From Ligustrum vulgare (taxonomy: Eukaryota; Streptophyta; Magnoliopsida; Lamiales; Oleaceae), in the NCBI GenBank assembly GCA_963555705.1, contig OY743176.1, positions 38,858,497 through 38,922,496 of the forward strand: 64,000 nt of DNA, in the 5' to 3' direction. The notes beneath the pieces are model-generated. The model was given only the letters and a program-made list of their open reading frames with translations. It was not told the origin of the DNA and searched no databases. Both the position numbers and the translations under genes were made by a program. The number at the start of each line of letters is the position of its first letter. The first letter of the stretch is position 1. Shown one piece after another: positions 18,573-39,371 of this stretch.

Positions 18573-18577
18573 TAAGC
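18573..18577. repeat. Left target-site duplication TAAGC of the solo LTR
   Basis: TAAGC flanks the solo LTR on both sides (here and at 20815-20819). Removing the LTR and one copy restores the normal satellite sequence GGATAAGCTGTTGGCAG, and restores a unit length of 1514 bp. Confidence 0.93.
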
Positions 18578-19510: not shown

Positions 19511-19517
19511 AATTTTT

Positions 19518-22704: not shown

Positions 22705-25374
22705 TGTGGCGCCCCGAGTTCCGTATACCCGGTTAACCACGTCATTTCCTTGTCTAAAATTTTCGAATAATATTTTTGCGGAAGAAATAATTGAAATTCA
22801 TTTTTGGCAACATTAAATAAACTGTAATGACCGATAAAATTGAAAACATTTATGAAATCATTTGAAATAGTAAATCGAACCATTAATTTTGTAAAGAAAT
22901 TGACAATGTCATAATTTCTCAAATAAATGAACTTCTCTAATTATTCGATTGTTTGGAAAATACGGAAATCATTTATGTCAAACTTTCAACCGTTTAACAA
23001 TTATTGCCACCATCATTCATCGCTCGCCACCGTCTCCGAAATCTGCAAAACTGTTAAAAAGTAGGGTGAGCATTTCATGGGGGGAAATACTCAGTAGACT
23101 CATCACAAATTAATTAATTTATAAGATGATTAAACACATAAATCCCGGCTCTTTATAAAACGGGCATTGATAGGGCTTCTTTATAAAACGGCTCTTGATA
23201 AAACTCATATTGTGCATTACAGCACGGGACATATTTTGAAAATCATAAGCTCTTTGAAAACAGTTCTTTGAAAATAGCTCTTTGAAAACGTAGGGATCAT
23301 TTTCATCATAACATAGGATATGATCCAAATCCTCATAAACATATCATAAAAATATCAGTAAGTATACCAAGCATAAATTTCGAAATTCATAGGGATCATT
23401 TCCACCATAACATAGGGTAGGATGGAAATCCTCATAAACATGGATATGATCGAAATCCTCATAAACATATGGATACACAAGAATTTTACCGAACTTAGGT
23501 GGCAAGAATTCTTATTCCATCATAACATAGCAATCTTGGGAGATTGATTTCATAGCAATCATGGGAGATTGATGTCAATCTTGGGAGATTGAAAACATAG
23601 CAATCTGGGGAGATTGATTTCATAGAAATGATCCAAAACATATAAAATATTTTCGTAAAAACATAGGGTATACTTACTTTTCATAAAAATGACTTTCACA
23701 AGTCACATGACATTTATATGAAATCATAATTTAAATCAATTAATAAGTGCGAGTCTACCTCAAATCCGACGAGTACAAAGTTGAGCGGGAATGACTTCAA
23801 TTTCTTTAAATTCTCCGTAAGCTTCGTCTTAGCCAATAAGTCACTTTAGTCTATCGAATATATAGTTCAAAATGATAAATTATAATTTGAGGACTTAAAT
23901 TGATGTTTTGAAAGTTGAGGGACTAAAATGAATACTTTTAAAAGTTGAGTCGGAAACTCAAAACAATAGAGTTGAAATAATATATTTTAAAAATGAAGGC
24001 TGAATAAAATCATTTAAAACTTAAGGGACTGAAGTGAATTGTTTTAAAACCATAGGGACTGAATTGAATAACTTTTCAAACTTGGGGCTAATTTGCAAAT
24101 TCTGAAAATTGAATATATTATCTATTCTTTACTCCTCTCTCTCATTCTTCGCAAATCAGAGCATTAGAGAGAGACAGGTGAAAGAGGCGAGAGACGGAGT
24201 TGCGAGGGTTGCGAAATCCGGTCTTTCACCGGGGATTTTCCGGCGCTACGCCGGCACAAGGTGGCGGTGACAAGGAAAAGGTATTGGTAGTAGGAAGGCA
24301 CGATTTGGATGTTGATTCGAAGTGAAACCGTAGCTCTAGGTCTCGGAAAATTCGTGGTTTTCCGGCTAGGAAATCAACGATCGAGGTAAGTATTTGGGTA
24401 TTCTTGGGTTTTGGGTTTTGAGTTTGATTTGGGTTCTGATTTTGATTTGAGTCGAAACCGAGGGTAGATGTTGGCTGCAAATTAGAGATCCAAGTTTGTG
24501 GCTTGGACGAAAAATACTTTTCTGTGAATCAAAGTGTGAATTTGGGATTAGCAGTTGGTTTTAGGTGGTGAAGTTGCAGTCGATGAGTGCAGACAGTGGT
24601 GGCTGGATTGCAATGTGATGGTTCGGACTGTGAGTTGGAGGTGGTAACTTGGCAGTGATGATACTGATTGCAGTGTAAATGGTTTGTGCAGTAGTTGCTA
24701 AGATGGAGATGATAATGGTGATATAGTGGGTTGAATTTGATTTCTGAATGGTGATGAAGATGTATGCTTTCGGCTATTAAGGTGATGAAAATGATGATGT
24801 TGGAGAATATTAGATGTAAAGGTGGAATAAAATGTGGGTTGCTATGTGTGTGATGAATGATGAAGATTCTAATGGTATAAAGAGAGAATTGTGGTGGTGT
24901 TCAACCGAGATGGTAGTGATGATGAATGGAGAATATAATAAAAGATGGTGGAGAATTGGTAGGAAAAGAGTGATAAAGAAAATGTTTTAAAGTGTGGGTT
25001 GGTTTTCATGATGAGTGTACAAAGTGATGAAAATGGAGAAGGAAAATAATTTAAAAAGAAAAAGAAAGAATAAAAATAATTAATGGGATACTAGCATAAT
25101 TAGGCTAATGTTTAATTTAAGATAATTAATTAGATATCTTTAATAATTTGGAATTTAAAATGATTTTGAAAATAATACTTTGAATAAATAATTAAAATAA
25201 CATAATTTTAGAAATTCGGATTTTAATTTAAAATCGAACAAATTCGATATTTCTTGACTTGGTTAGACGAACACGTCGCGGTGTTAACTTCAAAACAATA
25301 GGTGAAATAGTAGCGACACAATTTTCTAAATATTAAAAATAATTATTATTGCGTAAAAATTCTGGGTCGCTACA
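22705..25374 (-). mobile_element. 3' LTR of the outer element (2670 bp)
   Basis: The plus strand reads TGTGGCGCCCCGAG at the left and GGGTCGCTACA at the right. It contains short internal repeats: three TCTTTGAAAA units at 23251-23288, GATCATTT...CATAAACATAT blocks at 23306-23470, and CAATCTTGGGAGATTG units at 23529-23616. It has about 50 bp more of the last repeat than the 5' LTR, and about 54 bp less of the CTTTTCATAAAAACATA repeat. About the first 250 bp of the U3 end (25374 back to about 25130) match the start of the inner element's LTR, so the two are subfamilies of one lineage. Small frames on both strands are not supported as genes. Confidence 0.93.
24114..24386 (+). promoter_or_regulatory. 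Predicted antisense LTR promoter with leader and 5' splice site
   Basis: On the plus strand there is a TATA-like TATATTA (24114-24120) and a CT-rich stretch TCCTCTCTCTCATTCTTC. A GA-rich leader (about 24160-24215) is followed by a strong 5' splice site GAG|GTAAGT with the cut after 24385. It points into the internal region and toward the two cargo genes, which are on the same strand. It would let the 3' LTR drive the cargo as a spliced antisense transcript. An identical copy lies in the 5' LTR (donor at about 30904). Function is inferred from layout and from the matching arrangement in the solo LTR. Confidence 0.45.
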
Positions 25375-25380
25375 ATCTTA

Positions 25381-25391
25381 CCCCCTTAAAA
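25381..25391 (-). other. Polypurine tract of the outer element
   Basis: The minus strand reads TTTTAAGGGGG, 6 bp from the 3' LTR boundary and just after the pol remnant. It is the expected primer for plus-strand DNA synthesis and fixes the element's direction together with the primer binding site. Confidence 0.75.
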
Positions 25392-25448
25392 TAATTTCGT
25401 CCTCGAAATTAAACTTACTTGATGTTATGATTTCTGAATACTTAATCA

Positions 25449-25475
25449 GAATCTCTTCTTCTTTCTCTTATGTAG
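25449..25475 (+). promoter_or_regulatory. Candidate 3' splice site upstream of the cargo genes
   Basis: A long pyrimidine tract (TCTCTTCTTCTTTCTCTTA) runs into TGTAG, with the cut after 25475. It lies on the antisense strand of the pol remnant, about 790 bp before the first cargo gene. With the donor at 24385 it would define an intron of 1090 bp. The inner element keeps the tract and the TGTAG at 37416-37443 on its minus strand. Prediction only. Confidence 0.35.
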
Positions 25476-25512
25476 CATCATCGCTACCATATTTAACCCA
25501 CTGGACTTTGAC

Positions 25513-26220
25513 TAAATGCATCACTTTGTTTTCTTAAGAACATGGACTTTTCTATAGACATATGTGTCTACTCATAAATTCTTCTGAATCAAAATGAAAA
25601 TTCCCAATCGTATGTGATATTTCATCATATCTTGTAGTATTCATGTAACTTGTCACTTATCATCGTATCACGTGACCTCAAATATTCGTATATATCTCTA
25701 AAATTTCAACAATTCTTTACTGATATATCATATCATAATAATTTTTCCTTTCTTCTTATCATCGAATATTCCCAAAATAATCAAAGAATTACCTGAATAT
25801 TCTCTCTACGTAATATACCCAAACATATCAACATAATATCATCAACTTATCTTTCCAATATTTGTAACCCAAAAATTCAGTAAACAAATATCTCCCAAAT
25901 AACTAAGATTCTTTACTTAAATGTCATCACATTTCCTGCAAAGTATTTCTTTCACTTATACATACTTATGAATTCTGATTCAATACGGTCCTTATTTCTC
26001 TTTCACGTATTCCCGTATCATCTCTATACCTTGATTATTATATCAAAATATCAGTACCAAAATCCAAGAAAATATTCCATATCTCAAATCCCATCATCAA
26101 ATCTTTCTTTTATCAAGAAAGTAAACGGCGCATAAACTCTGTCTCCTCTTTTCATTAAAATAATCCTGCGCTTTCTTGCTGGACACAACATCACGCGGAT
26201 TCACTCAGATCCTTAATGCT
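25513..26220. other. Gene-free internal spacer of the outer element
   Basis: An AT-rich stretch colinear with 36630-37360 of the inner element (reverse complement). The minus strand may hold further degenerate pol codons just past 25512, shifted by one base relative to the remnant. Nothing else recognisable is present. Confidence 0.6.
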
Positions 26221-26229
26221 TTTAAATAG
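26221..26229 (+). promoter_or_regulatory. TATA-like box of the cysteine-cluster gene
   Basis: TTTAAATAG lies 33 bp before the chosen start codon and is kept in the inner copy (36620-36628, minus strand). The same nonamer precedes the LOG gene. The spacing would leave a leader of only a few bases, so translation may instead rely on a longer transcript from the LTR. Confidence 0.45.
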
Positions 26230-26261
26230 TTCATACTGGGAAGAGGTTGAATCATCAAACA

Positions 26262-26813
26262 ATGGATATCATCCTTACAAACATCCGCAAGTATTATTCC
26301 AGTCTTCCTATGAATGATCTGAGAAAAATCTATAGAATAAGGCTCGAAAGATTGAGGTTGCTGATGGCTCATGATATTCCAGAAGATGTTCGCTGGTTGA
26401 TAGAAGCAAAGGTTCGACTATCTGGTGAATTACCATCAACATTTCCTAAACACATGCGTGGTTTAGGCAAAAGCACTTTTGCAAATAAACGAAGAGCAAA
26501 AAGACTGGGTGGTTGCTACAAATGTGCTCGTTGGAACTGTAATACTCATTGCAAAACAGTAGGATATTCTTCTACTAATCGGGATGATAAAATCGAATTC
26601 ATAAAGGGTGGACTGAGTAAGGAGTCTTTGGATGATATCCGACTGACTCTTGAGACGCACCCAAGTGGTTATGTGCAACGTGAACTTCTCTCCTTATACG
26701 CTCAGTTTAACGAGGACAAAAATCGTTATAGTCTCCAAAATATAATATCGAAAGATCCTGTTTGCCAGTCTGTTTTACAAAATGAGGCTTCTGGCAGTTC
26801 AGCAATGATATAA
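26262..26813 (+). CDS. Basic cysteine-cluster protein, resembling plant-virus nucleic-acid-binding proteins (outer copy)
   Basis: An intact 183-residue protein. The N-terminal half (1-65) is rich in Arg, Leu and charged residues and probably helical. A basic stretch KRRAKR (76-81) is followed at once by a cysteine cluster C85-x2-C88-x4-C93-x3-C97, a likely zinc site. The C-terminal part has no recognised motif. The order of a GKS/TFA-type turn, an Arg/Lys block and then CYKC is like the nucleic-acid-binding (cysteine-rich) proteins of carla- and vitivirus-type flexiviruses. Those proteins bind nucleic acid, and several suppress RNA silencing. The resemblance is by eye and the function here is inferred. 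I start at the ATG of MDIIL because the ATG 15 bp upstream is absent from the inner copy. The two copies differ at 14 residues, but all four cysteines of the cluster and the basic block are kept. The LOG gene follows 286 bp downstream on the same strand. Confidence 0.8.
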   Translation: MDIILTNIRKYYSSLPMNDLRKIYRIRLERLRLLMAHDIPEDVRWLIEAKVRLSGELPSTFPKHMRGLGKSTFANKRRAKRLGGCYKCARWNCNTHCKTVGYSSTNRDDKIEFIKGGLSKESLDDIRLTLETHPSGYVQRELLSLYAQFNEDKNRYSLQNIISKDPVCQSVLQNEASGSSAMI

Positions 26814-26908
26814 GGTAAATCTTTTAAAATATTTTGCTGCTTTCTTTCAAGTATTTTGGAAATAAAATATATTTTCCTTTCTCGAGTGTTGAAAAAAACT
26901 GGAAATAA

Positions 26909-26924
26909 ATCACCGAAAGGTGAT
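26909..26924 (+). other. Conserved GAAA-tetraloop hairpin between the cargo genes
   Basis: ATCACC-GAAA-GGTGAT forms a perfect 6-bp stem with a GNRA-type loop, 95 bp after the stop of the cysteine-cluster gene. It is kept exactly in the inner element (about 35874-35889, opposite strand), although the sequence around it differs by a 45-bp duplication. It may be a 3' end or stability element of the first transcript; role unknown. Confidence 0.5.
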
Positions 26925-26939
26925 ATCTTTGGTAAAACA

Positions 26940-27025
26940 GTCAAAAGTTGGCCGATTTTGTCAAAAGTAAATCTTTACTTTTTCAGAATCAATCAAAAAC
27001 AGTAAATTTTTCCGGCTTTAAATAG
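26940..27025 (+). promoter_or_regulatory. LOG promoter: two GTCAAAAGT boxes and a TATA-like box in a dyad
   Basis: GTCAAAAGT occurs at 26940-26948 and 26960-26968. Read on the other strand each contains TTGAC, the core of the plant W-box bound by WRKY factors. TTTAAATAG at 27017-27025 lies 75 bp before the LOG start, inside the inverted repeat GGCTTTAAATAGCC. The inner element has the same pieces with the same 75-bp spacing (TATA-like box at 35772-35780). A private promoter makes sense because the gene is antisense to the element. Confidence 0.5.
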
Positions 27026-27099
27026 CCAAACATATTTCATAGTTCAGGCATCCCAAAATCACATCTTCTTCGTAAGTTTTCCCTTCTTGACTATCAAAG

Positions 27100-27753
27100 A
27101 TGGAAGCACCAAAACTTCGACAGATCAAAAATATTTGTGTATTTTGTGGATCAAAAGCGGGGAAAGGCTTCGGTTATCTAGAAGCGGCTGTAGATCTTGG
27201 AAAGAAACTGGGGGAAAAAGGTATCACTCTTGTATATGGGGGTGGTAGCAGTGGTCTAATGGGTTGTGTTTCCCAATCTGCTCTTGCAGAGAAATCAAAA
27301 GTAATCGGTGTCATACCTGTCCCTTTGGTAGATGTTGCAGGCAAAACACGAGGGCATGAAGTTCAAACCTTATCCATCCATGAACGCATAACTTGTATGC
27401 TATATGGTTCTGATGCCTTTATAGCCCTGCCCGGAGGTTTTGGTACCTTAGAAGAAATCTTTAACATTACCTCGTGGGCTCAACTAGATCTCCATACTAA
27501 GCCTATTGGGCTTCTGAATGTTAACAATTTCTTTGATGGTTTGTTAACTTTTCTTAATTATGCTGTGGAACAGGGATTCATCTCTCCATTTTCCAGAAGG
27601 CTTCTTATTTCTGCTCCTACTATTGATGAACTACTGGATAAGCTGCAGTCATATATCTCAATACAAGATCCAGCAGGAGTTAAGATAGATTGGTCGCAAG
27701 GAAGGGGAATCAAGCGAAAATGGAGTCCGGTTAATGTAAACTTAACTCTGTGA
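27100..27753 (+). CDS. LOG-like: LOG-family cytokinin riboside 5'-monophosphate phosphoribohydrolase (outer copy)
   Basis: An intact 217-residue protein of the usual LOG length. LOG enzymes act in the cytosol, cutting ribose 5-phosphate from cytokinin nucleotides to release the active base in one step. The N-terminal strand ICVFCGSK (12-19), the nucleotide-fold loop YGGGSSGLMG (46-55) and GVIP (70-73) are in place. The signature PGGFGTLEE (111-119) includes its catalytic Glu119. The Arg of the upstream catalytic motif is kept (Arg96 in IHERITCM), but the Lys that normally follows it in plant LOGs is Ile97. The C-terminal tail after about 187 (QDPAGVKIDWSQGRGIKRKW) is more basic than I expect for the family. 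The gene has no introns, whereas plant LOG genes normally have several, so it was probably captured as a spliced RNA. It lies in the element's internal region, antisense, with its own TATA-like box. The inner copy differs at four residues. Confidence 0.93.
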   Translation: MEAPKLRQIKNICVFCGSKAGKGFGYLEAAVDLGKKLGEKGITLVYGGGSSGLMGCVSQSALAEKSKVIGVIPVPLVDVAGKTRGHEVQTLSIHERITCMLYGSDAFIALPGGFGTLEEIFNITSWAQLDLHTKPIGLLNVNNFFDGLLTFLNYAVEQGFISPFSRRLLISAPTIDELLDKLQSYISIQDPAGVKIDWSQGRGIKRKWSPVNVNLTL

Positions 27754-27762
27754 ATCTTAGAA

Positions 27763-27985
27763 TAGGTGGGGGTAGAGTACGGAGTATTCTCACTCTCGAG
27801 ACACCCCTCCATTTACTAGGATTTCCTTAATGTTTAAATCTTGTGTGTACTTCAAAGATCCAAGGTGGTAGATTACGGAGTATTCTTACTCTCGAAACAC
27901 ACCTCTTTGAAGGTTTTCTCTTTATATCCTCAAAAGATCAGAGGTGGTAGGATACGGCTACTCCGGAAACATATCTCTCATTCTG
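27763..27985 (+). repeat. Three hairpin-forming repeats behind the LOG gene
   Basis: Three imperfect copies lie at about 27763-27810, 27863-27905 and 27941-27980. The second reads AGGTGGTAGATTACGGAGTA then TTCT then TACTC and ends ACACACCT. GAGTA pairs with TACTC around a TTCT loop, and the outer AGGTG pairs with CACCT. The third copy has lost the inner stem. All three are kept in the inner element (34821-35032, opposite strand). They would lie in the LOG 3' untranslated region. A poly(A) signal AATAAA follows at 28077-28082. Role unknown. Confidence 0.6.
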
Positions 27986-28105
27986 AGGATCTTTCCATGT
28001 TTTTCTCTTATGCTTTCATGTGTTTCATGTATTTCCTTTCCAGTGTGACTCTTGTGTGTTCTCCTTATGAGAAAATAATAAAATCTCTGCTATCATCTAC
28101 TAAAT

Positions 28106-29204
28106 CTCGTTTGTGATGTAAATGAACTTGCATGTCTAACCTTAATTCCTTTAGTGGATGCTTATCATATCATGCTCTTAATTCCAAATGATAAAATTCT
28201 GGACAGAGTCTCCCTTGTAATTTGGACTTATCCAAACCATAAGCATACTTCATAACCAACAATAATAATTAACTCCACATTTGATCACAACGATCTAAAA
28301 TTGACAATAATTCCATCACTTCAATATCATAAAAATATCCCATAATTCATTCATAATTCCTCAACATAACAATTTCAAATCATATTTTCAATATCACAAT
28401 ATCACTTCCTTCCATACCTTAATTGGCTCAAAAGATTACTCATACTTATAAATATATGCCATAAATCATATTCCCAAAATTTATTCACAAGGCCAAACTT
28501 CATAATAAATTTCTTTTCAACATAGAGGCATAATTCATTTACTTAACATAATATCCATTACTTAAATACCAAAAACTAAGAACCAAATCTTTAAATCTCT
28601 AACTTCATAATGCTTCTCATAAAAGTCTCAATAAAATCATATCACTTATAATCTTAACATCTTATCACAACTTCATAACTGGCTTGCTATTTCTCGTTTA
28701 ATCTAAACGATAGATAATCTGAACATATAATCAAATCCTTTCTGTTGACTTCTCATACTTAGTGCCATGTCTAAAATCAATTATGCAAAGTCCATTTAGG
28801 GTTCATCATTTCTAACTCGAGGACAAAAATTATTAAAAATCATTCTTAAATCATATTATTCCCATTATGCTCAACACTCGTTTTCTTTCTGAAAAATTTC
28901 TTATAGTCATGCATTAAAGCATATAAGTTATGACAAAGCATAACAACATCATTATTTCCGAAGAAATACATTCTCATTTCTCATAAATCATAAGTATCCG
29001 AAATACTCTTCATTCTTTCTCATAAATCAATAAAATGAGTATTCGAAATACTGAAATAGCTTTAAACATCATAAACTTCTTTACCTCGGAGTTGGTGGAA
29101 CGAATGATGGCAGTGGCAATCTTCATCAATAAAAATCTTATAATGGAAAATATTTCTTGAAAATTCTTTTTGAGAATTTTACCAGTCTACAGAAACGCAG
29201 ACTA
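28106..29204. other. Gene-free internal spacer of the outer element
   Basis: An AT-rich stretch with stops in all frames. The part around 28690-28810 is colinear with 34150-34290 of the inner element. The part from about 28830 to the primer site has no counterpart there, because the inner leader has been replaced. No gene or RNA seen. Confidence 0.6.
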
Positions 29205-29216
29205 GCTCTGATACCA
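29205..29216 (-). other. Primer binding site for initiator Met-tRNA (outer element)
   Basis: The minus strand reads TGGTATCAGAGC, complementary to the 3' end of plant initiator Met-tRNA, 3 bp from the LTR end at 29220. It fixes the outer element on the minus strand. Confidence 0.92.
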
Positions 29217-29219
29217 ACT

Positions 29220-31125
29220 TGTGGCGCCCCGAGTTCCGTATACCCGGTTAACTACGTCATTTCCTTGTCTAAGATTTTCGAATAATATTTTTGCGGAAGA
29301 AATAATTGAAATTCATTTTTGGCAACATTAAATAAACTGTAATGGCCGATAAAATTGAAAACATTTATGAAGTCATTTGAAATAGTAAATCGAACCATTA
29401 ATTTTGTAAAGAAATTGACAATGTCATAATTTCTCAAATAAATGAACTTCTCTAAATTATTCGATTGTTTGGAAAATACGGAAATCATTTATGTCAAACT
29501 TTCAACCGTTTAAAAATTATTGCCACCATCATTCATCGCTCGCCACCGTCTCCGAAATCTGCAAAACTGTTAAAAAGTAGGGTGAGCATTTCATGGGGGA
29601 AATACTCAGTAGACTCATCGCAAATTAATTAATTTATAAGATGATTAAACACATAAATCCCGGCTCTTTATAAAACGGGCATTGATAGGGCTTCTTTATA
29701 AAACGACTCTTGATAAAACTCATATTGTGCATTACAGCACGGGACATATTTTCAAAAGCATAAGCTCTTTGAAAACAGTTCTTTGAAAATAGCTCTTTGA
29801 AAACATAGGGATCATTTTCATCATAACATAGGATATGATCCAAATCCTCATAAACATATCATAAAAATATCAGTAAGTATACCAAGCATAAATTTCGAAA
29901 TTCATAGGGATCATTTCCATCATAACATAGGGTAGGATCGAAATCCTCATAAACATGGATAGGATCGAAATCCTCATAAACATATGGATACACAAGAATT
30001 TTACCGAACTTAGGTGGCATGAATTCTTATTCCATCATAACATAGCAATCTTGGGAGATTGAAAACATAGCAATCTGGGGAGATTGATTTCATAGAAATG
30101 ATCCAAAACATATAAAACATTTTCGTAAAAATATAGGGTATACTTACTTTTCATAAAAACATAAAGTATATTTTCTTTTCATAAAAACATACTTACTTTT
30201 CATAAAAATGACTTTCACAAGTCACATGACATTTATATGAAATCATAATTTAAATCAATTAATAAGTGCGAGTCTACCTCAAATCCGACGAGTGCAAAGT
30301 TGAGCGGGAATGACTTCAATTTCTTTAAATTCTCCGTACGCTTCGTCTTAGCCAATAAGTCACTTTAGTCTATCGAATATATAGTTCAAAATGATAAATT
30401 ATAATTTGAGGACTTAAATTGATGTTTTGAAAGTTGAGGGACTAAAATGAATACTTTTAAAAGTTGAGTCGGAAACTCAAAACAATAGAGTTGAAATAAT
30501 ATATTTTAAAAATGAAGGCTGAATAAAATCATTTAAAACTTAAGGGACTGAATTGAATTGTTTTAAAACCATAGGGACTGAATTGAATAACTTTTCAAAC
30601 TTGGGGCTAATTTGCAAATTCTGGAAATTGAATATATTATCTATTCTTTACTCCTCTCTCTCATTCTTCGCAAATCAGAGCATTAGAGAGAGACAGGTGA
30701 AAGAGGCGAGAGACGGAGTTGCGAGGGTTGCGAAATCCGGTCTTTCAACGAGGATTTTCCGGCGCTACGCCGGCACAAGGTGGCGGTGACAAGGAAAAGG
30801 TATTGGTAGTAGGAAGGCACGATTTGGATGTTGATTCGAAGTGAAACCGTAGCTCTAGGTCTCGGAAAATTCGTGGTTTTCCGGCTAGGAAATCAACGAT
30901 CGAGGTAAGTATTTGGGTATTCTTGGGTTTTGGGTTTTGAGTTTGATTTGGGTTCTGATTTTGATTTGAGTCGAAACCGAGGGTAGATGTTGGCTGCAAA
31001 TTAGAGATCCAAGTTTGTGGCTTGGACGAAAAATACTTTTCTGTGAATCAAAGTGTGAATTTGGGATTAGCAGTTGGTTTTAGGTGGTGAAGTTGCAGTC
31101 GATGAGTGCAGACAGTGGTGGCTGG
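29220..31125 (-). mobile_element. 5' LTR of the outer element, U5-side part
   Basis: The first 1906 bp (plus-strand order) of the 5' LTR, homologous to 22705-24617, up to the GCTGG where the inner element is inserted. It includes the second copy of the antisense promoter block (donor near 30904). It has an extra CTTTTCATAAAAACATA repeat at 30150-30210 and lacks one CAATC...GATTG repeat present in the other LTR. Confidence 0.93.
31121..31125. repeat. Left target-site duplication GCTGG of the inner element
   Basis: GCTGG flanks the inner element here and at 39367-39371. The empty site is seen intact in the other LTR of the outer element (GGTGGCTGGATTGCAATG, about 24599-24616), which proves the junction. 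Confidence 0.96.
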
Positions 31126-31460
31126 TGTAGCGACCAAGAATTTTTACGCGATTAATAATTATTTTAATAGAAAATCGTGTCGCTACTATTTCACCCATTT
31201 TTATTAAGTTAACGCCACGACGTATTCGTATAGCCAAGTCAAGAAATAATCGAGATCGTTCGATTTTAAATTAAATTCCGAATTTCTAAAAATATCTCCA
31301 TTCTCTTGATTTAAAGTATATTAAGTCCAAGTACTTAATTCAATGTTATCCCAATATTTATTTACACAAAAATTATTTTTATTATTGAAATTAAGAAAAT
31401 ATATGCAAGCATGAGAGGTTCCATTATATATAATAATTATGAGAATCTTAATTTAATAAA

Positions 31461-31840
31461 TATGGAAAAGTATATGAATGAATTATATACTCCATTATAT
31501 GTAATCATGAAGAGCATAATATTTGTATAAATATGGAAAAGTATATGAATGAATTATATACTCCATTATATGTAATCATGAAGAGCATAATATTTGTATA
31601 AATATGGAAAAGTATATGAATGAATTATAGACTCCATTATATGTAATCATGAAGAGCATAATATTTGTATAAATATGGAAAAGTATATGAATGGTTGATA
31701 AGACTCCATTATATGTAATCATGAAGAGCATAATATTTGTATAAATATGGAAAAGTATATGAATGGTTGATAAGACTCCATTATATGTAATCATGAAGAG
31801 CATAATATTTGTATAAATATGGAAAAGTATATGAATGGTG
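31461..31840 (+). repeat. Six 71-72-bp tandem repeats in the 5' LTR
   Basis: TATGGAAAAGTATATGAATG recurs at 31461, 31532, 31603, 31674, 31746 and 31818 (spacing 71, 71, 71, 72, 72). The later units have GGTTGATAAGACTCC in place of AATTATATACTCC. The same array is in the 3' LTR at 37852-38231. The minus-strand frame across it only reflects the repeat. Confidence 0.95.
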
Positions 31841-32059
31841 CTTTACTTTAAGAAAAGGATGTGTTAAAATTAATAGAATTGAATGATTATATTTACAATA
31901 TGCCAACTTTATACATCTATTTAAACTCATCTCTTTTACACACAACTCTACACATATACACTTATTTCCAATCTCTTGACAAAATCCACAAGTAAGAGAA
32001 ATTCAAGGTGGTCAAGAAAGTTTTGGTCCATTTACTACTACACTTCATTTTAATCTTTT

Positions 32060-32463
32060 AACAAGTAAGTATATCTTATGTTTTTATGAAAAGTAAGTAT
32101 GTTTTTATGAAAGGTAAATACACCTTATGTTTTTATGAAAAGTAAGTATGTTTTTATGACAAGTAAGTATATCTTATGTTTTTATGAAAAGTAAGTATGT
32201 TTTTATGAAAGGTAAATACACCTTATGTTTTTATGAAAAGTAAGTATGTTTTTATGACAAGTAAGTATATCTTATGTTTTTATGAAAAGTAAGTATGTTT
32301 TTATGAAAGGTAAATACACCTTATGTTTTTATGAAAAGTAAGTATGTTTTTATGACAAGTAAATATATCTTATGTTTTTATGAAAAGTAAGTATGTTTTT
32401 ATGAAAGGTAAATACACCTTATGTTTTTATGAAAAGTAAGTATATCTTATGTTTTTATGAAAA
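32060..32463 (+). repeat. Minisatellite with a 98-bp higher-order period in the 5' LTR
   Basis: Short units of about 24-25 bp (ATGTTTTTATGAAAAGTAAGT and variants) are arranged in a 98-bp pattern. The ACAAGTAAGTATATC variant recurs at 32060, 32158, 32256 and 32354. The outer LTRs hold only one to three units of the same motif near 23660 and 30150, so it has expanded in this subfamily. The identical array is in the 3' LTR at 38451-38854. Confidence 0.92.
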
Positions 32464-32977
32464 TGTTTGGATCATTGCTATGAAATCAATCTCACAAGAT
32501 TGTTATGGGTTCCATATGATATGTTTATGATTATGCTAAGGGGACCGGAGTTTAGTAGCGCTACACATAAGAATTCTTGCCATTTAAGTTCAGTAAAATT
32601 CTTGTGTCTCCCTATGTTTATGAGTATTTCGATCCTATCCTATGTTATGATGAAAATGATCCATATGCTTTCAAAAGAAAATTTATGCTTGGTATACTTA
32701 CTGAGATTTTATAAATCTCACTCCACGATATTTACCATTTTCAGATAATTGAAGGTTCGAGGCGGTCAACATGGAAGTGGCAAAAGTGGTTAAGATTGAT
32801 GAGATAATTATGTTGAACTTTATGAAAGAAAATTATGTTCTATTTTTATTCACAAATAAAATTATGGGATTCTAATTATTCTTTTGAATAATTTTACATT
32901 TCTATTTAAGTCTCGATAATATGATATGAGTCACTTTTAGTGGCACTCGAATGGTCGAGAATTCGGGTCGTCACAGT

Positions 32978-32990
32978 TGGTATCAGAGAC
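32978..32990 (+). other. Primer binding site for initiator Met-tRNA (inner element)
   Basis: TGGTATCAGAGAC begins 2 bp after the 5' LTR. It matches the usual plant initiator Met-tRNA primer site over 11 bases, with one A inserted before the final C. Confidence 0.88.
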
Positions 32991-33032
32991 AAGAGTTTTA
33001 AAAACGATTCTGTAGATTTTTGAAATTTTATT

Positions 33033-33036
<4 letters not shown>

Positions 33037-33077
<41 letters not shown>
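33037..33077 (+). repeat. 41-bp poly-A tract in the leader
   Basis: An uninterrupted A run 46 bp after the primer site, absent from the outer element. It is followed by CACTATTCACGTGAACAGT, which holds the perfect palindrome TTCACGTGAA, and by further CTATTCA...TGAACAG half-sites up to 33142. The run length may be unreliable because of slippage. Confidence 0.85.
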
Positions 33078-33078
<1 letters not shown>

Positions 33079-33079
33079 A

Positions 33080-33142
33080 CTATTCACGTGAACAGTAAAA
33101 CGACGTGCTATTCATGATGAACAGTGAACGAAATCACTATTC
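33080..33142 (+). other. Palindrome cluster in the leader (possible RNA dimer/packaging signal)
   Basis: TTCACGTGAA (palindrome), TTCATGATGAA and repeated ACTATTCA / TGAACAGTGA half-sites can form small hairpins just downstream of the primer site. That is the position where retroviral and retrotransposon RNAs carry dimer-linkage and packaging signals. The role is inferred from position only. Confidence 0.35.
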
Positions 33143-33209
33143 AATTAAAAAAAAAATTTGAATTTTCACATGTCAAGTATGGTTATGATTTTGAAAAGTA
33201 TGATGAAAT

Positions 33210-33803
33210 TTGATGTGCGAATTTCAAGGACAAAATTCATTTTAAGCAAGGGAGTTTGTAATGTTCTGAAAATTTTATGGAATATAATTAGTTAGTGATA
33301 TGATTTTTATATTGATGTCTTTGATAAATTTCTAGAAGTTCGGGGACTAAAGGAAAATAAGATTTGACGATAAAATTTTATTTGGGTTAATTAGGCCCAA
33401 TCTTATGTAAAGATGCGAAATGATTAATAATAATTTTTTTTTAAATATTTTAACTCATCACTCTACTATGTCACTCTCCACGTATTGACTCCTCGAACCA
33501 GGTATGTTATATGCTTTGCAAGTCATTTACGATTTTATTAAGACATGTTAAGTATGAAATATTCATATGTTATGAATCTTTAAGTGAAATATACATGTTG
33601 AGTATGATATGAATTGATAGAAGCCTAAATTTTAATTTATTCATTTTAATGTAGAATCATGAGACATAGAGGATATTGATATGAATTTTGGTTCATATTA
33701 AGCTTAGTAAGATTGACTCAATTAGAAATTAAGTTGGGTTGTAACTTTGGCCCAAAATATATGGAATAATATATTAAACAAACAAAATTGATAATGAATT
33801 GTA
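33210..33803 (+). mobile_element. Relic of another LTR element: pol/polypurine-like end and LTR start
   Basis: At about 33217-33262 the sequence TTTCAAGGACAAAATTCATT then TTAAGCAAGGGAGTTTGTAA mirrors the element's own 3' junction (TTTCGAGGACGAAATTATTT, TTAAGGGGGTAAGTTTGTAG). It looks like a decayed polypurine tract plus the start of a foreign LTR beginning TGTAATGTTCTG. The region up to about 33500 has LTR-like content, including GGGGACTAAAGG and an AG|GTATGT splice-donor-like site near 33502. It is missing from the outer element, so the inner leader is a chimera. Confidence 0.45.
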
Positions 33804-34083
33804 CAATAATTTATCCCTTTATCACTACCTTTGTGTAAAAACAAGGGAAAAACTGTGGATGGTTATTAGTACTTCCTCTTCAAGTTTCAATTTTCGGTTC
33901 AATAATTTATCCCTTTATCACTACCTTTGCTTAAAAGCAAGGAAAAACTGTGGATGATTATTGGTACCACTCTTCAAGTTTCAATTTTCGGTTCAATAAT
34001 TTATCCCTTTATCACTACCTTTGCTTAAAAGCAAGGAAAAACTGTGGATGATTATTGGTACCACTCTTCAAGTTTCAATTTTG
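33804..34083 (+). repeat. Three ~94-bp tandem repeats in the internal region
   Basis: CAATAATTTATCCCTTTATC starts copies at 33804, 33900 and 33994. Each ends CAAGTTTCAATTTT. Copies two and three are nearly identical and copy one is more diverged. The array ends in an A run of about 18 bases (34084-34101). No counterpart in the outer element. Confidence 0.9.
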
Positions 34084-34101
34084 AAAAAAAAAAAAAAAAA
34101 A

Positions 34102-34815
34102 TATGATTTACGAATGATTTTCAAAATAATCTTTGTCGTCAAGTTTAGAAATGATGAGCCCTAAATGGACTTTGCATAATTGATTTTAGACATGGCACTA
34201 AGTATGAGAAGTCAACAGAAAGGACTAGATAATATTTTCGAATTATTCATCGTTTAGATTAAACGAGAAATAGAAAGTCAGTTTTATGAAGTTATGAAGA
34301 GATGTTGAGATTATAAGTGATATGATTTTATTGAGATTTTTATGAGAAGAATTATGAAGTTGGAGATTTAAAGTTTAGGCTCTTAATTATTGAGAAATAA
34401 GGACTTGATATGGTGATATTAGAAATTATGATTTGAAATTTCTATGTTGAGGAATTATGAATTGATTTTCTGGAATATTTATGATGATATTGAAGTTTGA
34501 TGAAATTGTGATCAAATGTACAATTAGTTATTATTGTGAGTTATGAAGTATGCTCACGATTTGGATAAGTCCAAATTTCAAAGGAAAACTCTGCCTAGAA
34601 TTTTATCGTTTGGAGTTAAGAGCATAGTATGGTATGCAATCACTAAGAGAATTGAAGTTAGACATACAAGTTCATTTACATCACAAACGAGATTTAGTAG
34701 ATGATAACAGAGATATTATTATTTTCTCATAAGGAGAACACACAAGAGTCACCCTAGAAAGGAAATACATGAAAACACGCAAAAGCAAAAGAAAGCAACA
34801 TGGGAAATTCCTCAA
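34102..34815. other. Gene-free internal spacer of the inner element
   Basis: AT-rich and colinear with about 28110-28830 of the outer element (opposite strand), though with many differences. No open frame of interest on either strand. Confidence 0.6.
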
Positions 34816-34820
34816 ATTGA

Positions 34821-35032
34821 GAGATGTGTTTCCGGAGTAGCCGTATCCTACCACCTCTGACCTTTTGAGGAAATAAAGAAACCTTCAAAAAGGTGTGTTT
34901 CGAGAGTAAGAATACTCCGTAATCTACCACCTGGAACCTTTGAGGTACACACAAGATTTAAACATTAAGGAAAATCCTAGGAAATTAGAGGGGTGTCTCG
35001 AGAGTAAGAATACTCCGTACTCTACCCCCACC
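34821..35032 (-). repeat. Three hairpin repeats behind the inner LOG gene
   Basis: Copies at 34821-34857, 34891-34931 and 34989-35032, counterparts of those at 27763-27985. Copy 34989-35032 keeps a perfect GAGTA-AGAA-TACTC stem, which the outer counterpart has partly lost. Their survival in both elements argues for a role in the LOG transcript's 3' region. The AATAAA of the outer element reads AATAAT here. Confidence 0.6.
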
Positions 35033-35043
35033 TATTCTAAGAT

Positions 35044-35697
35044 TCATAAAGTTAAGTTTACATTAACCGGACTCCATTTTCGCTTGATTCCCCTTCCTTG
35101 CGACCAATCTATCTTAACCCCTGCTGGATCTTGTATTGAGATATATGACTGCAGCTTATCCAGTAGTTCATCAATAGTAGGAGCAGAAATAAGGAGTCTT
35201 CTGGAAAATGGAGAGATGAATCCCTGTTCCACAGCATAATCAAGAAAGGTTAACAAGCCATCAAAGAAATTGTTAACATTCAGAAGCCCAATAGGCTTAG
35301 TATGGAGATCTAGTTGAGCCCACGAGGTAATGTTAAAGATTTCTTCTAAGGTACCAAAACCTCCGGGCAGGGCTATAAAGGCATCAGAACCATATAGCAT
35401 ACAAGTTATGCGTTCATGGATGGATAAGGTTTGAACTTCATGCCCTCGTGTTTTTCCTGCAACATCTACCAAAGGGACAGGTATGACACCGATTACTTTT
35501 GATTTCTCTGCAAGAGCAGATTGGGAAACACAACCCATTAGACCACTGCTACCACCCCCATACACAAGAGTGATACCTTTTTCCCCCAGTTTCTTTCCAA
35601 GATCTACGGCCGCTTCTAGATAACTGAAGCCTTTCCCCACTTTTGATCCACAAAATACACAAATAGTTTTGATCTGTCGAAGTTTTGGTGCTTCCAT
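35044..35697 (-). CDS. LOG-like: LOG-family cytokinin riboside 5'-monophosphate phosphoribohydrolase (inner copy)
   Basis: An intact 217-residue protein, antisense to the inner element. It differs from the outer copy at four residues (N11T, A20V, G25S, N153D). None of these is in YGGGSSGLMG (46-55), the Arg96 motif or PGGFGTLEE (111-119). At the DNA level I count 14 differences in 654 bp: 10 silent and 4 replacement. Random change would give about three replacements per silent change, so the protein looks selected. It starts 75 bp after the TATA-like box at 35772-35780 and ends about 10 bp before the first hairpin repeat. As in the outer copy there are no introns. Family membership is secure; enzyme activity is inferred from the kept catalytic Arg and Glu. 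Confidence 0.93.
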   Translation of the reverse strand: MEAPKLRQIKTICVFCGSKVGKGFSYLEAAVDLGKKLGEKGITLVYGGGSSGLMGCVSQSALAEKSKVIGVIPVPLVDVAGKTRGHEVQTLSIHERITCMLYGSDAFIALPGGFGTLEEIFNITSWAQLDLHTKPIGLLNVNNFFDGLLTFLDYAVEQGFISPFSRRLLISAPTIDELLDKLQSYISIQDPAGVKIDWSQGRGIKRKWSPVNVNLTL

Positions 35698-35771
35698 CTT
35701 TGATAGTATAGAAGAGAAAACTTACGAAGAAGATGTGATTTTGGGATGCCTGAACTATGAAATATGTTTGG

Positions 35772-35780
35772 CTATTTAAA
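35772..35780 (-). promoter_or_regulatory. TATA-like box of the inner LOG gene
   Basis: The minus strand reads TTTAAATAG inside the inverted repeat GGCTTTAAATAGCC, 75 bp before the start codon as in the outer copy. Two TTTTGAC (W-box core) sites lie upstream, near 35831-35855. Confidence 0.5.
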
Positions 35781-35886
35781 GCCGGAAAAACTTACTGTTT
35801 TTCATTGATTCTGAAAAAGTAAAGATTTACTTTTGACAAAATCGGCCAACTTTTGACTGTTTTACCAAAGATATCACCTTTCGGTG

Positions 35887-35980
35887 ATTTATTTCCAGCT
35901 TTATCAAACCTCGAGAAAGGAAAATATATTTATTTCCAGCTTTATCAAAACTCGAGAAAGGAAAATATATTTTATTTCCA
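35887..35980 (-). repeat. 45-bp tandem duplication between the inner cargo genes
   Basis: TTTATTTCCAGCTTTATCAA followed by a CTCGAGAAAGGAAAATATAT segment is present twice here and once in the outer element. It accounts for most of the length difference between the two intergenic regions. Confidence 0.8.
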
Positions 35981-36034
35981 AAACGCGTGAAAGAAAACAG
36001 CAAAATATTTTAAATGTGTATCAAGAGATTTACC

Positions 36035-36586
36035 TTATATCATTGATGAACTGCCAGAAGCCTCATTTTGTAAAACAGACTGGCAAACAGGATCTTTTGC
36101 TATTATATTTTGGAGACTATAACGATTTTTGTCCCCGTTAAACTGAGCGTATAAGGAGAAAAGTTCACGTTGCACATAACCACTTGGGTGCGTCTCAAGA
36201 GTCAGTCGAATATCATCCAAAGACTCCTTACTCAGTCCACCCTTTATGAATTTGATTTTATCATCCCGATTAGTAGAAGAATATCCTACTGTTTTGCAAC
36301 GAGTATCACAGTTCCAACGAGCACATTTGTAGCAACCATTCAGCCTTTTTGCTCTTCGTTTCTTTGCGAAGGTGCTTTTGCCTAAACCAGGCATGTGCTT
36401 TGGAAATGTCATAGGTAATTCACCAGATAGTCGAACCTTTGCTTCGATCAACCAGCGAACATCTTCTGAAACACCATGAGCCATCAGCAACCTCAATCTT
36501 TCTAGTCTTATTCGATAAATTTTCCTCAGATCATTCATTGGAAGACTGGAATAATACTTGCGAATGTTTGTAAGAATGATATCCAT
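36035..36586 (-). CDS. Basic cysteine-cluster protein, resembling plant-virus nucleic-acid-binding proteins (inner copy)
   Basis: An intact 183-residue protein starting MDIILTNIRK, antisense to the inner element and upstream of its LOG gene. It differs from the outer copy at 14 residues, for example D38G, I39V, P40S, S59M, R66P, N75K, G84N, N94D and H96R. It keeps the basic block (76-81) and all of C85, C88, C93 and C97. I count 16 silently changed codons against 14 replaced ones, again an excess of silent change but with weaker constraint than LOG. The base just upstream of the start differs so that the outer copy's earlier ATG is missing, which supports the MDIIL start in both. Virus-like origin and nucleic-acid binding are inferred from the motif order only. 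Confidence 0.8.
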   Translation of the reverse strand: MDIILTNIRKYYSSLPMNDLRKIYRIRLERLRLLMAHGVSEDVRWLIEAKVRLSGELPMTFPKHMPGLGKSTFAKKRRAKRLNGCYKCARWNCDTRCKTVGYSSTNRDDKIKFIKGGLSKESLDDIRLTLETHPSGYVQRELFSLYAQFNGDKNRYSLQNIIAKDPVCQSVLQNEASGSSSMI

Positions 36587-36619
36587 GTTTTGATGGATCT
36601 AACCTCTTCCCAGCATGAA

Positions 36620-36628
36620 CTATTTAAA
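36620..36628 (-). promoter_or_regulatory. TATA-like box of the inner cysteine-cluster gene
   Basis: The minus strand reads TTTAAATAG, 33 bp before the start codon, as in the outer copy. The distance implies a very short leader unless transcription starts further upstream. Confidence 0.4.
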
Positions 36629-36629
36629 A

Positions 36630-37279
36630 GCATTAAGGATCGGAGGAAATCCGCGTGATATTGATTCCAGCAAGAAAGCGCGGAATAGAATAATGGAAAA
36701 GAGGGAACAAGAGTTATGCGCCGTTTACTTTCTTGATAAAAGGAAGATTTGATGATGACGGGATTTGAGATATGGAATATTTTCTTGGATTTTGGGTACT
36801 GATATTTTGATATAATAATCAAGGTATAGAAATAATACGGGGATACGTGAAAGTGAAATAAGGACTGTATTGAATCAGGATTAATAAGTTTGTGCAAGTG
36901 AAAGGAATACCTTACGGGAAATGTTATGATATTTGAGTTAAGAATTTTAATTATTTGGGAGATATTTGTTTATTGAATTTTGCAGAAATTTTGGGTTACA
37001 AATATTGGAAAGATAAACTGATGATTATGTTGATATGTGAATAACATGTTTGGGTATATTACATAGAGAATATTCAGGTAATCGTTTTAATTATTTTGGG
37101 ATATTTGGTGATAAGAAGAAATGACAAATTATTATGGTATGATATGTTAGTAAAGATTTATTGAAATTTTAGAGATATTAATACGAATATTTGAGGTTAC
37201 ATGATACGATGATAAGTGACAGGTTACATGAGTACTACAAGATATGATGAAATATCACATACGATTGGGAATTTTCATT
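36630..37279. other. Gene-free internal spacer of the inner element
   Basis: AT-rich and colinear with about 25560-26220 of the outer element. An open frame of 120 codons on the minus strand (36535-36897) runs into the cysteine-cluster gene in another frame and is not kept in the outer element. Nothing else recognisable. Confidence 0.6.
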
Positions 37280-37513
37280 TTGATTCAGAAGAATTTATGA
37301 GTAGACATATGTCTATTATTGATAGAAAAGTTCATGTCTTAAGAAAACAAATTGATGCATTTAGTCAAAGTCCAGTGGGTTAAATATGGTTGGGTTAAAT
37401 ATGGTAGCGATGATGCTACATAAGAAGAAGAAGAAGAGATTCTGATTAAGTGTTCAGAAATCATAAGATCAAGTAAGTTTAATTTCGAGGACGAAATTAT
37501 TTTAAGGGGGTAA
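37280..37513 (+). pseudogene. C-terminal remnant of Ty3/gypsy pol (inner element)
   Basis: Two overlapping frames give a recognisable end of pol. IIDRKVHVLRKQI (about 37309-37350) is followed, one frame over, by VKVQWVKYG (from 37364). A 15-bp in-frame duplication, a stop at 37421-37423 where the family has W, and then ILIKCSEIIRSSKFNFEDEI to the stop at 37511-37513 complete it. The same stop is in the outer element, which lacks the 15-bp duplication. This places both elements in Ty3/gypsy. Confidence 0.72.
37504..37510 (+). other. Polypurine tract of the inner element
   Basis: AAGGGGG followed by TAAGTT and then the 3' LTR at 37517. It is the expected plus-strand primer site and agrees with the primer binding site on direction. 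Confidence 0.75.
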
Positions 37514-37516
37514 GTT

Positions 37517-39366
37517 TGTAGCGACCAAGAATTTTTACGCGATTAATAATTATTTTAATAGAAAATCGTGTCGCTACTATTTCACCCATTTTTATTAAGT
37601 TAACGCCACGACGTATTCGTATAGCCAAGTCAAGAAATAATCGAGATCGTTCGATTTTAAATTAAATTCCGAATTTCTAAAAATATCTCCATTCTCTTGA
37701 TTTAAAGTATATTAAGTCCAAGTACTTAATTCAATGTTATCCCAATATTTATTTACACAAAAATTATTTTTATTATTGAAATTAAGAAAATATATGCAAG
37801 CATGAGAGGTTCCATTATATATAATAATTATGAGAATCTTAATTTAATAAATATGGAAAAGTATATGAATGAATTATATACTCCATTATATGTAATCATG
37901 AAGAGCATAATATTTGTATAAATATGGAAAAGTATATGAATGAATTATATACTCCATTATATGTAATCATGAAGAGCATAATATTTGTATAAATATGGAA
38001 AAGTATATGAATGAATTATAGACTCCATTATATGTAATCATGAAGAGCATAATATTTGTATAAATATGGAAAAGTATATGAATGGTTGATAAGACTCCAT
38101 TATATGTAATCATGAAGAGCATAATATTTGTATAAATATGGAAAAGTATATGAATGGTTGATAAGACTCCATTATATGTAATCATGAAGAGCATAATATT
38201 TGTATAAATATGGAAAAGTATATGAATGGTGCTTTACTTTAAGAAAAGGATGTGTTAAAATTAATAGAATTGAATGATTATATTTACAATATGCCAACTT
38301 TATACATCTATTTAAACTCATCTCTTTTACACACAACTCTACACATATACACTTATTTCCAATCTCTTGACAAAATCCACAAGTAAGAGAAATTCAAGGT
38401 GGTCAAGAAAGTTTTGGTCCATTTACTACTACACTTCATTTTAATCTTTTAACAAGTAAGTATATCTTATGTTTTTATGAAAAGTAAGTATGTTTTTATG
38501 AAAGGTAAATACACCTTATGTTTTTATGAAAAGTAAGTATGTTTTTATGACAAGTAAGTATATCTTATGTTTTTATGAAAAGTAAGTATGTTTTTATGAA
38601 AGGTAAATACACCTTATGTTTTTATGAAAAGTAAGTATGTTTTTATGACAAGTAAGTATATCTTATGTTTTTATGAAAAGTAAGTATGTTTTTATGAAAG
38701 GTAAATACACCTTATGTTTTTATGAAAAGTAAGTATGTTTTTATGACAAGTAAATATATCTTATGTTTTTATGAAAAGTAAGTATGTTTTTATGAAAGGT
38801 AAATACACCTTATGTTTTTATGAAAAGTAAGTATATCTTATGTTTTTATGAAAATGTTTGGATCATTGCTATGAAATCAATCTCACAAGATTGTTATGGG
38901 TTCCATATGATATGTTTATGATTATGCTAAGGGGACCGGAGTTTAGTAGCGCTACACATAAGAATTCTTGCCATTTAAGTTCAGTAAAATTCTTGTGTCT
39001 CCCTATGTTTATGAGTATTTCGATCCTATCCTATGTTATGATGAAAATGATCCATATGCTTTCAAAAGAAAATTTATGCTTGGTATACTTACTGAGATTT
39101 TATAAATCTCACTCCACGATATTTACCATTTTCAGATAATTGAAGGTTCGAGGCGGTCAACATGGAAGTGGCAAAAGTGGTTAAGATTGATGAGATAATT
39201 ATGTTGAACTTTATGAAAGAAAATTATGTTCTATTTTTATTCACAAATAAAATTATGGGATTCTAATTATTCTTTTGAATAATTTTACATTTCTATTTAA
39301 GTCTCGATAATATGATATGAGTCACTTTTAGTGGCACTCGAATGGTCGAGAATTCGGGTCGTCACA
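37517..39366 (+). mobile_element. 3' LTR of the inner element (1850 bp)
   Basis: The same sequence as 31126-32975, base for base as far as I can read, including both tandem-repeat arrays (37852-38231 and 38451-38854). It is followed by the target duplication GCTGG at 39367-39371. Confidence 0.95.
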
Positions 39367-39371
39367 GCTGG

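What the first reader, a model, noticed from the sequence alone, without database searches (positions are those of the whole stretch)
25375..37516. Two retrotransposons carry the same two-gene cargo: a virus-like nucleic-acid-binding protein and a cytokinin-activating LOG enzyme
Seen: the outer (minus) and inner (plus) elements each hold intact genes for a 183-residue basic cysteine-cluster protein (26262-26813; 36035-36586) and a 217-residue LOG protein (27100-27753; 35044-35697). Order and orientation relative to the element are the same, and no gag-pol genes are present. Known: LOG releases active cytokinin, and flexivirus cysteine-rich proteins bind nucleic acid and can suppress silencing. 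Inferred: a non-autonomous element that may counter host silencing and push cell division, or alter cytokinin, to favour its own spread. I am not aware of a description of this pair in a retrotransposon.
Basis: partly seen in the sequence, partly recalled or inferred. Interest (0 to 1): 0.93.

Follow-up and report, generated by a model that had tools for sequence, protein, structure and literature searches.

The report
Retrotransposons carrying a two-gene nuclear toolkit
Two plant jumping elements, one nested in the other, each carry back-to-front the same pair of uninterrupted genes, one resembling a plant-virus nucleic-acid-binding protein and one from a distinct branch of a hormone-activating enzyme family with an altered pocket and a tail predicted to recruit gene-silencing helpers, so the pair would likely act on host gene activity in the nucleus rather than simply make the growth hormone.

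Summary
Two LTR elements (outer, minus strand, 22705-40139; inner, plus strand, 31126-39366) each hold the same open NABP and LOG genes, antisense to the element. Both have perfect 5-bp TSDs, a tRNA-Met-type primer site, a shared polypurine tract and no detectable gag-pol. Inner LTRs are identical over 1850 bp; outer LTRs differ at 25 of 2624 aligned sites. The gene pair diverged earlier (dS 0.07-0.16) under purifying selection (dN/dS 0.12, 0.24).

It is no local accident: relatives occur in several rosid and asterid plants, the two genes diverge in step, and one NABP lies in sense 3' of a Gypsy-type integrase.

The interpretation needs changing. LOG-like ORFs in Gypsy elements are already in print (PMC9289625). 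The element-type LOGs keep the catalytic Arg/Glu but mostly lost the pocket Lys (kept in 8 of 122; host list 120 of 120) and Glu, and most gained a C-terminal LxLxL (EAR-like) tail (92 of 120; host list 0 of 120). The window copies end VNVNLTL, one step off. I favour a nuclear co-repressor-recruiting module over cytokinin production. Copy number in this genome is untested: the genome search did not complete.

The parts
22705..25374 (-). outer element, 3' LTR (2670 bp)
   Evidence: LTR pair, 25 mismatches of 2624 aligned sites plus 96 gap columns; TSD AAGGT outside it
29220..31125 (-). outer element, 5' LTR, first piece (interrupted by the inner element)
   Evidence: PBS AGTTGGTATCAGAGC follows it on the minus strand
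39372..40139 (-). outer element, 5' LTR, second piece
   Evidence: TSD AAGGT follows at 40140-40144
25375..29219 (-). outer element interior, no gag-pol found; PPT next to 25375, PBS next to 29219
26262..26813 (+). outer NABP gene, 183 aa, antisense to the element
   Evidence: PF05515 and PF01623 above cut-off
27100..27753 (+). outer LOG gene, 217 aa, one open frame without introns, antisense to the element
   Evidence: PF03641 E 1.9e-33
31126..32975 (+). inner element 5' LTR (1850 bp), preceded by TSD GCTGG
   Evidence: identical to the 3' LTR
32976..37516 (+). inner element interior: PBS GTTGGTATCAGAG at its start, PPT TTTAAGGGGGTAAG at its end, no gag-pol found
35044..35697 (-). inner LOG gene, 217 aa, antisense; catalytic R96 and E119 kept, pocket Lys is I97 and pocket Glu is N122; C-terminus VNVNLTL
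36035..36586 (-). inner NABP gene, 183 aa, antisense; basic KKRRAKR then CxxCxxxxCxxxC
37517..39366 (+). inner element 3' LTR, followed by TSD GCTGG

Best explanation
Two non-autonomous LTR retrotransposons carry, antisense to themselves, the same two open genes, one for a flexivirus-type cysteine-cluster protein (NABP) and one for a LOG-fold protein of a separate clade, and the two proteins are predicted to act together in the host nucleus, where the NABP would bind nucleic acid and the LOG protein would recruit TOPLESS-type co-repressors through its C-terminal tail, likely easing host silencing or defence against the element. Shown: the elements, the open genes, purifying selection between the two copies, the altered LOG pocket, and the conserved tail in most listed relatives. 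Supported but partly inferred: linkage of the two genes in other plants. Inferred: antisense expression from a promoter in or next to the 3' LTR, nuclear entry through the basic clusters, co-repressor binding, and benefit to the element. The kept catalytic Arg/Glu pair suggests that the LOG protein still hydrolyses a nucleotide, probably not the usual cytokinin precursor. Lacking gag-pol, the elements would be copied by the proteins of an autonomous relative.
For: Purifying selection between the two copies: LOG 10 synonymous against 4 replacement changes, dN/dS 0.12; NABP 17.7 against 16.3, dN/dS 0.24; Fisher tests on rounded counts 2e-4 and 4e-5. Cargo dS 0.07-0.16 is far above LTR divergence (0 of 1850; 25 of 2624), so the frames stayed open since well before both insertions. 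Relatives: 343 NABP hits at E<=1 and 6971 LOG hits at E<=1e-20, 120 of each listed; 38 of the 120 listed LOG rows come from Reevesia pubescens, on 16 contigs told apart by length. Pairing: Orobanche minor and O. gracilis gene models join NABP and LOG (P0018, P0019); 4 contig-length coincidences between the lists against 0.37 expected; NABP and LOG distances correlate, r 0.73, p 0.0014 over 7 pairs. Tail: LxLxL in the last 12 residues in 92 of 120 element-type rows and 0 of 120 host-list rows; basic cluster in 105 and 1. Pocket Lys: 8 of 122 against 120 of 120. Element-type LOGs (55 rows of 122 used) form one side of a branch, SH-aLRT 94, with tail and Lys column left out. [quoted passage not shown]
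Against: Both window LOG copies end VNVNLTL, which misses strict LxLxL by Val for Leu. No expression, localisation, binding or enzyme data. Not every element-type row is shown to lie in an element. The host list is the best 120 of 7863 hits to an AtLOG3 fragment, so other host LOG branches, apart from a fragment of AtLOG8 whose tail was not seen, are unsampled. The tree is a quick one with open forks, and its 94 is below the tool's star. LxLxL needs 11 changes on it, partly through truncated rows. The Orobanche models have a degenerate or cut PGG motif (PGGYDTLNE in P0018). AlphaFold gave no usable NABP model (mean pLDDT 52), and the LOG tail is low-confidence. Non-coding DNA between the genes is also well kept (95.8%), more than NABP itself (93.8%). 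In L002 NABP stands without LOG.
Confidence: 0.4

Rival explanations
1. Cytokinin cargo, the first reader's idea: the LOG protein makes active cytokinin and pushes division of cells that will form the germ line, while NABP suppresses silencing.
For: LOG fold (Foldseek best hits AtLOG3 2a33 and AtLOG8 1ydh); PGGxGTxxE in 107 of 120 element-type rows, much as in the host list (108 of 120); catalytic Arg 114 of 122 and Glu 120 of 122 kept.
Against: Pocket Lys kept in only 8 of 122 rows and pocket Glu in 7 of 122, in both cases 120 of 120 in the host list. PMC4979012 (passages) lists these positions in the adenine and prenyl sites and reports almost complete loss of activity when the AMP-binding and catalytic residues it lists were changed to alanine, S19A excepted. 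Caveat: the same paper notes that MmLOG differs in this pocket and might make other cytokinins, so a changed pocket need not mean no cytokinin.
Confidence: 0.22
2. Passenger or RNA function: the region is copied because it sits between working LTR, PBS and PPT ends, and the useful product, if any, is antisense RNA rather than protein.
For: Genes are antisense; antisense RNA effects are discussed for other plant LTR elements (PMC7264820, passages). The intergenic stretch is 95.8% alike between copies.
Against: dN/dS 0.12 and 0.24 with Fisher p 2e-4 and 4e-5; open frames among relatives at about 50-60% identity; a conserved tail at the very C-terminus.
Confidence: 0.2
3. Packaging helper: NABP works as a nucleocapsid-like RNA chaperone that gets the non-autonomous RNA into a partner's particles, and LOG is secondary.
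For: Basic cysteine-cluster protein, present without a LOG match in the same contig next to a Gypsy-type integrase in L002.
Against: The motif CxxCxxxxCxxxC (106 of 120) is not the CCHC knuckle of gag nucleocapsids (recalled), and the idea does not explain the linked LOG.
Confidence: 0.1
4. Host-gene origin: the tailed LOG clade is an ordinary host LOG subfamily that elements captured more than once.
For: Automatic names such as LOGL10 in Populus and Diospyros; host sampling here is narrow.
Against: One side of a branch in the tree; 38 clusters on 16 contigs in one species; many full-length single frames called on short metagenome contigs, which suggests intronless genes (inference).
Confidence: 0.08

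Closest known systems
LOG/YgdH (LOGL4-like) extra ORFs in plant Gypsy elements (Steinbauerova 2011: abstract recalled, paper not held; PMC9289625 section 12 read)
   Same: LOG-fold ORF inside plant Gypsy elements (Citrus, Populus)
   Different: No NABP, pairing, pocket loss or EAR-like tail in what I could read; recalled as Athila-like elements, whereas these LTRs use a tRNA-Met-type primer site
Antisense additional ORFs (aORF-3R) of Grande, RIRE2, Retand, PvRetro13 (PMC7264820, passages)
   Same: Antisense ORFs in the 3' part of the element, possibly with their own antisense promoter
   Different: The review finds no clear relatives for those proteins (PvRetro13 has an SMC domain); here both proteins have recognisable relatives, and gag-pol is missing
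Flexivirus cysteine-rich / nucleic-acid-binding proteins (PF01623, PF05515)
   Same: Basic stretch followed by a cysteine cluster, above Pfam cut-offs in both window copies
   Different: Conserved parts beyond the stretch matched by the Pfam profiles; carried by retrotransposons. No viral protein was compared directly
Host LOG1/LOG3 enzymes (AtLOG3, 2a33)
   Same: Fold, PGGxGTxxE, catalytic Arg/Glu
   Different: Pocket Lys and Glu replaced, extra basic and amphipathic tail in most relatives, multicopy

Membership tests
Non-autonomous LTR retrotransposon | Two LTRs, TSD, PBS, PPT | tested here: met
   both elements
Non-autonomous LTR retrotransposon | No gag-pol | tested here: met
   20 of 20 non-cargo ORFs of 60 aa or more without a Pfam hit above cut-off
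[quoted passage not shown]
   PBS TTGGTATCAGAG in both; calling it tRNA-Met is from knowledge of plant PBS sequences. The same paper leaves chromovirus and Ty1/copia open
Cytokinin-activating LOG | LOG fold and PGGxGTxxE | tested here: met
Cytokinin-activating LOG | Catalytic Arg and Glu (CgLOG R99, E122) | tested here: met
   window R96, E119
Cytokinin-activating LOG | Adenine/prenyl pocket Lys100 and Glu125 (CgLOG) | tested here: not met
   window I97, N122 (PMC4979012)
Cytokinin-activating LOG | Hydrolysis of cytokinin riboside monophosphates | not testable with these tools
   needs assay
Flexivirus NABP/CRP | Pfam profile above cut-off | tested here: met
   both window copies. Relatives: 21 of 22 (PF05515) and 20 of 22 (PF01623) of A1 at E<=1e-3; single profiles fall just below cut-off in L002 (PF01623) and P0060 (PF05515)
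Flexivirus NABP/CRP | Basic motif next to a Cys cluster | tested here: met
   window copies; relatives: basic motif 99 of 120, Cys motif 106 of 120
Flexivirus NABP/CRP | Nucleic-acid binding, silencing suppression | not testable with these tools
   needs assay
EAR-motif repressor | LxLxL or DLNxxP | tested here: inconclusive
   92 of 120 relatives have LxLxL, but the window copies end VNVNLTL
EAR-motif repressor | TOPLESS/TPR binding | not testable with these tools
   needs assay

The most novel reading that the evidence does not exclude
Plant retrotransposons built a two-protein nuclear effector system: a virus-like DNA/RNA-binding protein plus a hormone enzyme converted into a TOPLESS recruiter with a new nucleotide substrate. 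The module has been kept across eudicots and moved between element lineages, and it reprograms host transcription to permit transposition.
Probability: 0.33. Interest if true: 0.9.

Novelty: new variant of a known kind. Interest (0 to 1): 0.72.

Why it matters
What antisense extra genes in plant retrotransposons do is an open question: a review finds no clear relatives for their proteins (PMC7264820, passages). Here both proteins have recognisable relatives and a clear, testable change (lost pocket Lys/Glu, gained basic plus LxLxL tail), so a role in host transcription or nucleotide metabolism can be tested directly. A large published survey called eORFs only from 250 codons (PMC6317226, passages) and would miss genes of 183 and 217 codons, so such modules may be more common than thought.

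Tried and rejected
Copy number in the window's own genome: the genome search was asked 13 times, always answered 'busy'; untested. Related loci in viral contigs: none for NABP; one 29% LOG match, L001, not followed. NABP structure: mean pLDDT 52, so no fold search was run with it. NABP profile against PDB sequences: one weak zinc-finger hit, E 0.33. A decayed endogenous flexivirus: no other viral gene showed up among the ORFs scanned, and the endogenous flexivirus sequence in PMC3136472 (passages) is replicase-like; rejected. Nested Athila-like remnant around the genes: L002's integrase and flanks give no convincing match in the window beyond NABP; no support. Contig-length coincidences at 1558 and 2128 bases are weaker than those at 4511 and 8723.
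Full report
WHAT IS THERE. Exact ends: inner element 31126-39366 (8241 bp, plus strand), LTRs 1850 bp with no difference, TSD GCTGG; outer element 22705-40139 (minus strand), LTRs 2670 and 2674 bp, 25 mismatches in 2624 aligned sites plus 96 gap columns, TSD AAGGT. The inner element inserted into the outer one's 5' LTR, and the outer one into a tandem satellite with 1.2/1.5-kb spacing. Both carry TTGGTATCAGAG straight after the 5' LTR and TTTAAGGGGGTAAG before the 3' LTR. By these signs the elements read inner plus, outer minus, and the genes run the other way: both genes are antisense in both elements. None of the 20 non-cargo stop-to-stop ORFs of 60 aa or more reaches a Pfam cut-off. That the window is plant DNA is inferred from its relatives.

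TWO SUBFAMILIES, ONE CARGO. The two LTR types are 86% alike over the first 170 bp and otherwise share patches of 30-349 columns at 67-90%, so the elements are not simple copies of each other. Their interiors align at 89.7% identity upstream of NABP, 93.8% in NABP, 95.8% between the genes, 97.9% in LOG and 75.1% downstream, gaps left out (962 gap columns downstream). Synonymous divergence of the genes is 0.164 (NABP) and 0.067 (LOG), while LTR divergence within each element is about 1% or nil. The genes therefore separated long before either insertion and stayed open. dN/dS is 0.24 and 0.12; Fisher tests on changed against unchanged sites give 4e-5 and 2e-4. These rest on small counts and one pair of copies. 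Against the more distant NABP of L002, dN is 0.31 and dS 1.43, near saturation.

NOT LOCAL. Protein searches report 343 NABP relatives (E<=1) and 6971 LOG relatives (E<=1e-20), of which 120 each were shown. Named hosts in the shown rows include Orobanche, Populus, Acer and Xanthoceras for NABP, and Reevesia, Diplodiscus, Populus, Diospyros, Parasponia, Primulina and Xanthoceras for LOG; placing these among rosids and asterids is from my own knowledge. 38 of the 120 LOG rows are Reevesia pubescens, on 16 contigs told apart by length. Linkage: gene models P0018 (O. minor) and P0019 (O. gracilis) run NABP into LOG. Among 46 NABP and 32 LOG rows with a single contig of 1.3-100 kb (rows on several contigs left out), four contig lengths coincide (8723, 4511, 2128, 1558; 0.37 expected, p 0.0006); that they are the same contigs is inferred. 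Over seven such pairs (window, two Orobanche, four by length) NABP and LOG distances correlate, Mantel r 0.73, p 0.0014; leaving out O. minor, r 0.64, p 0.025.

A SENSE RELATIVE BESIDE A GYPSY-TYPE INTEGRASE. L002, a 3330-base contig filed under a bacterial MAG, encodes an integrase (rve, Integrase_H2C2) followed in the same direction by an NABP 64% identical to the window's, then a polypurine-like tract. The frame just upstream of the integrase ORF holds a stop, so this copy need not be intact. It looks Athila-like to me by recall only. No LOG match lies in the contig, which ends 983 bases after NABP. So NABP can be an accessory gene 3' of pol. PMC6317226 (passages) states that tRNA-Met primers are found in Ty1/copia lineages and most chromoviruses and are not used by non-chromoviruses, so the window LTRs are not of Athila type, and the cargo has probably passed between element lineages (inference).

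THE LOG PROTEIN IS RE-TOOLED. [quoted passage not shown] In my alignment of 122 element-type rows (120, 2 from the window) and 120 host-list rows, the element-type rows keep Arg in 114, Glu122 in 120, Trp in 121, Met in 103 and His in 74 of 122; but Lys100 in only 8 and Glu125 in only 7, against 120 of 120 for both in the host list. The window copies have Ile and Asn there. At the C-terminus, 92 of 120 element-type rows have LxLxL within the last 12 residues and 105 a basic cluster in the last 28; in the host list 0 and 1. LxLxL is the EAR consensus (PMC6283911 and PMC9956375, abstracts in the search listing). In a quick 72-row tree (55 element-type rows, 14 host-list rows, 3 others) built without the tail and the Lys column, element-type LOGs are one side of a branch (SH-aLRT 94); the Lys state needs two changes and the LxLxL state eleven, partly from truncated rows. 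The five Xanthoceras rows of that tree lie at the base and keep Lys; three of them have a basic tail, none LxLxL. P0161, on the next branch, has both Lys and LxLxL. This suggests that the tail came before the pocket change.

LIMITS. The window copies end VNVNLTL, close to but not LxLxL. The label 'element-type' is by kinship, not by seeing each row in an element. The host list is biased to LOG1/LOG3. Function is untested. The structure model of LOG is good except the tail (mean pLDDT 79.5; residues 195-217 under 50) and matches AtLOG3 and AtLOG8 best; the NABP model is unusable.

MECHANISM. I favour a nuclear accessory module expressed antisense from the 3' LTR side: NABP, like carlavirus relatives that bind nucleic acid, suppress silencing and in one case act as a plant transcription factor (PMC9650830, PMC12172455, passages), together with a LOG-fold partner that would recruit TOPLESS-type co-repressors and may sense or hydrolyse a nucleotide. 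A role in easing silencing or defence is inference. Cytokinin release is the main rival.

IN PRINT. Searches: each seen as a listing of titles and abstract openings. All 23 held papers with both 'lonely guy' and 'retrotransposon' were listed; by titles and counts only PMC9289625 appears to bear on LOG in elements. In the rows listed I saw no report of NABP in a retrotransposon, of the pair, or of the tail. Most subscription papers are not held.

Noticed in passing
18577-20814 (-): A solo LTR with TSD TAAGC, related in two short patches (74% and 82%) to the outer element's LTR.
   Followed up: partly
1-18580 and 40140-64000: Long tandem satellite with 1.2-kb and 1.5-kb spacings, about 94-98% alike, into which the elements inserted.
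   Followed up: no
31420-31837, 32061-32443 and the same in the 3' LTR; 33804-34082: Tandem repeats of 71, 49/98 and 94 bp inside the inner element's LTRs and interior.
   Followed up: no
L002 1799-2347: An apparently plant Gypsy-type element fragment with NABP filed in a public bacterial MAG (Candidatus Nomurabacteria), probably contamination.
   Followed up: partly
P0018 (Orobanche minor gene model): Fused NABP-LOG model whose PGG motif reads PGGYDTLNE, so some copies may have lost catalysis or be decaying.
   Followed up: no
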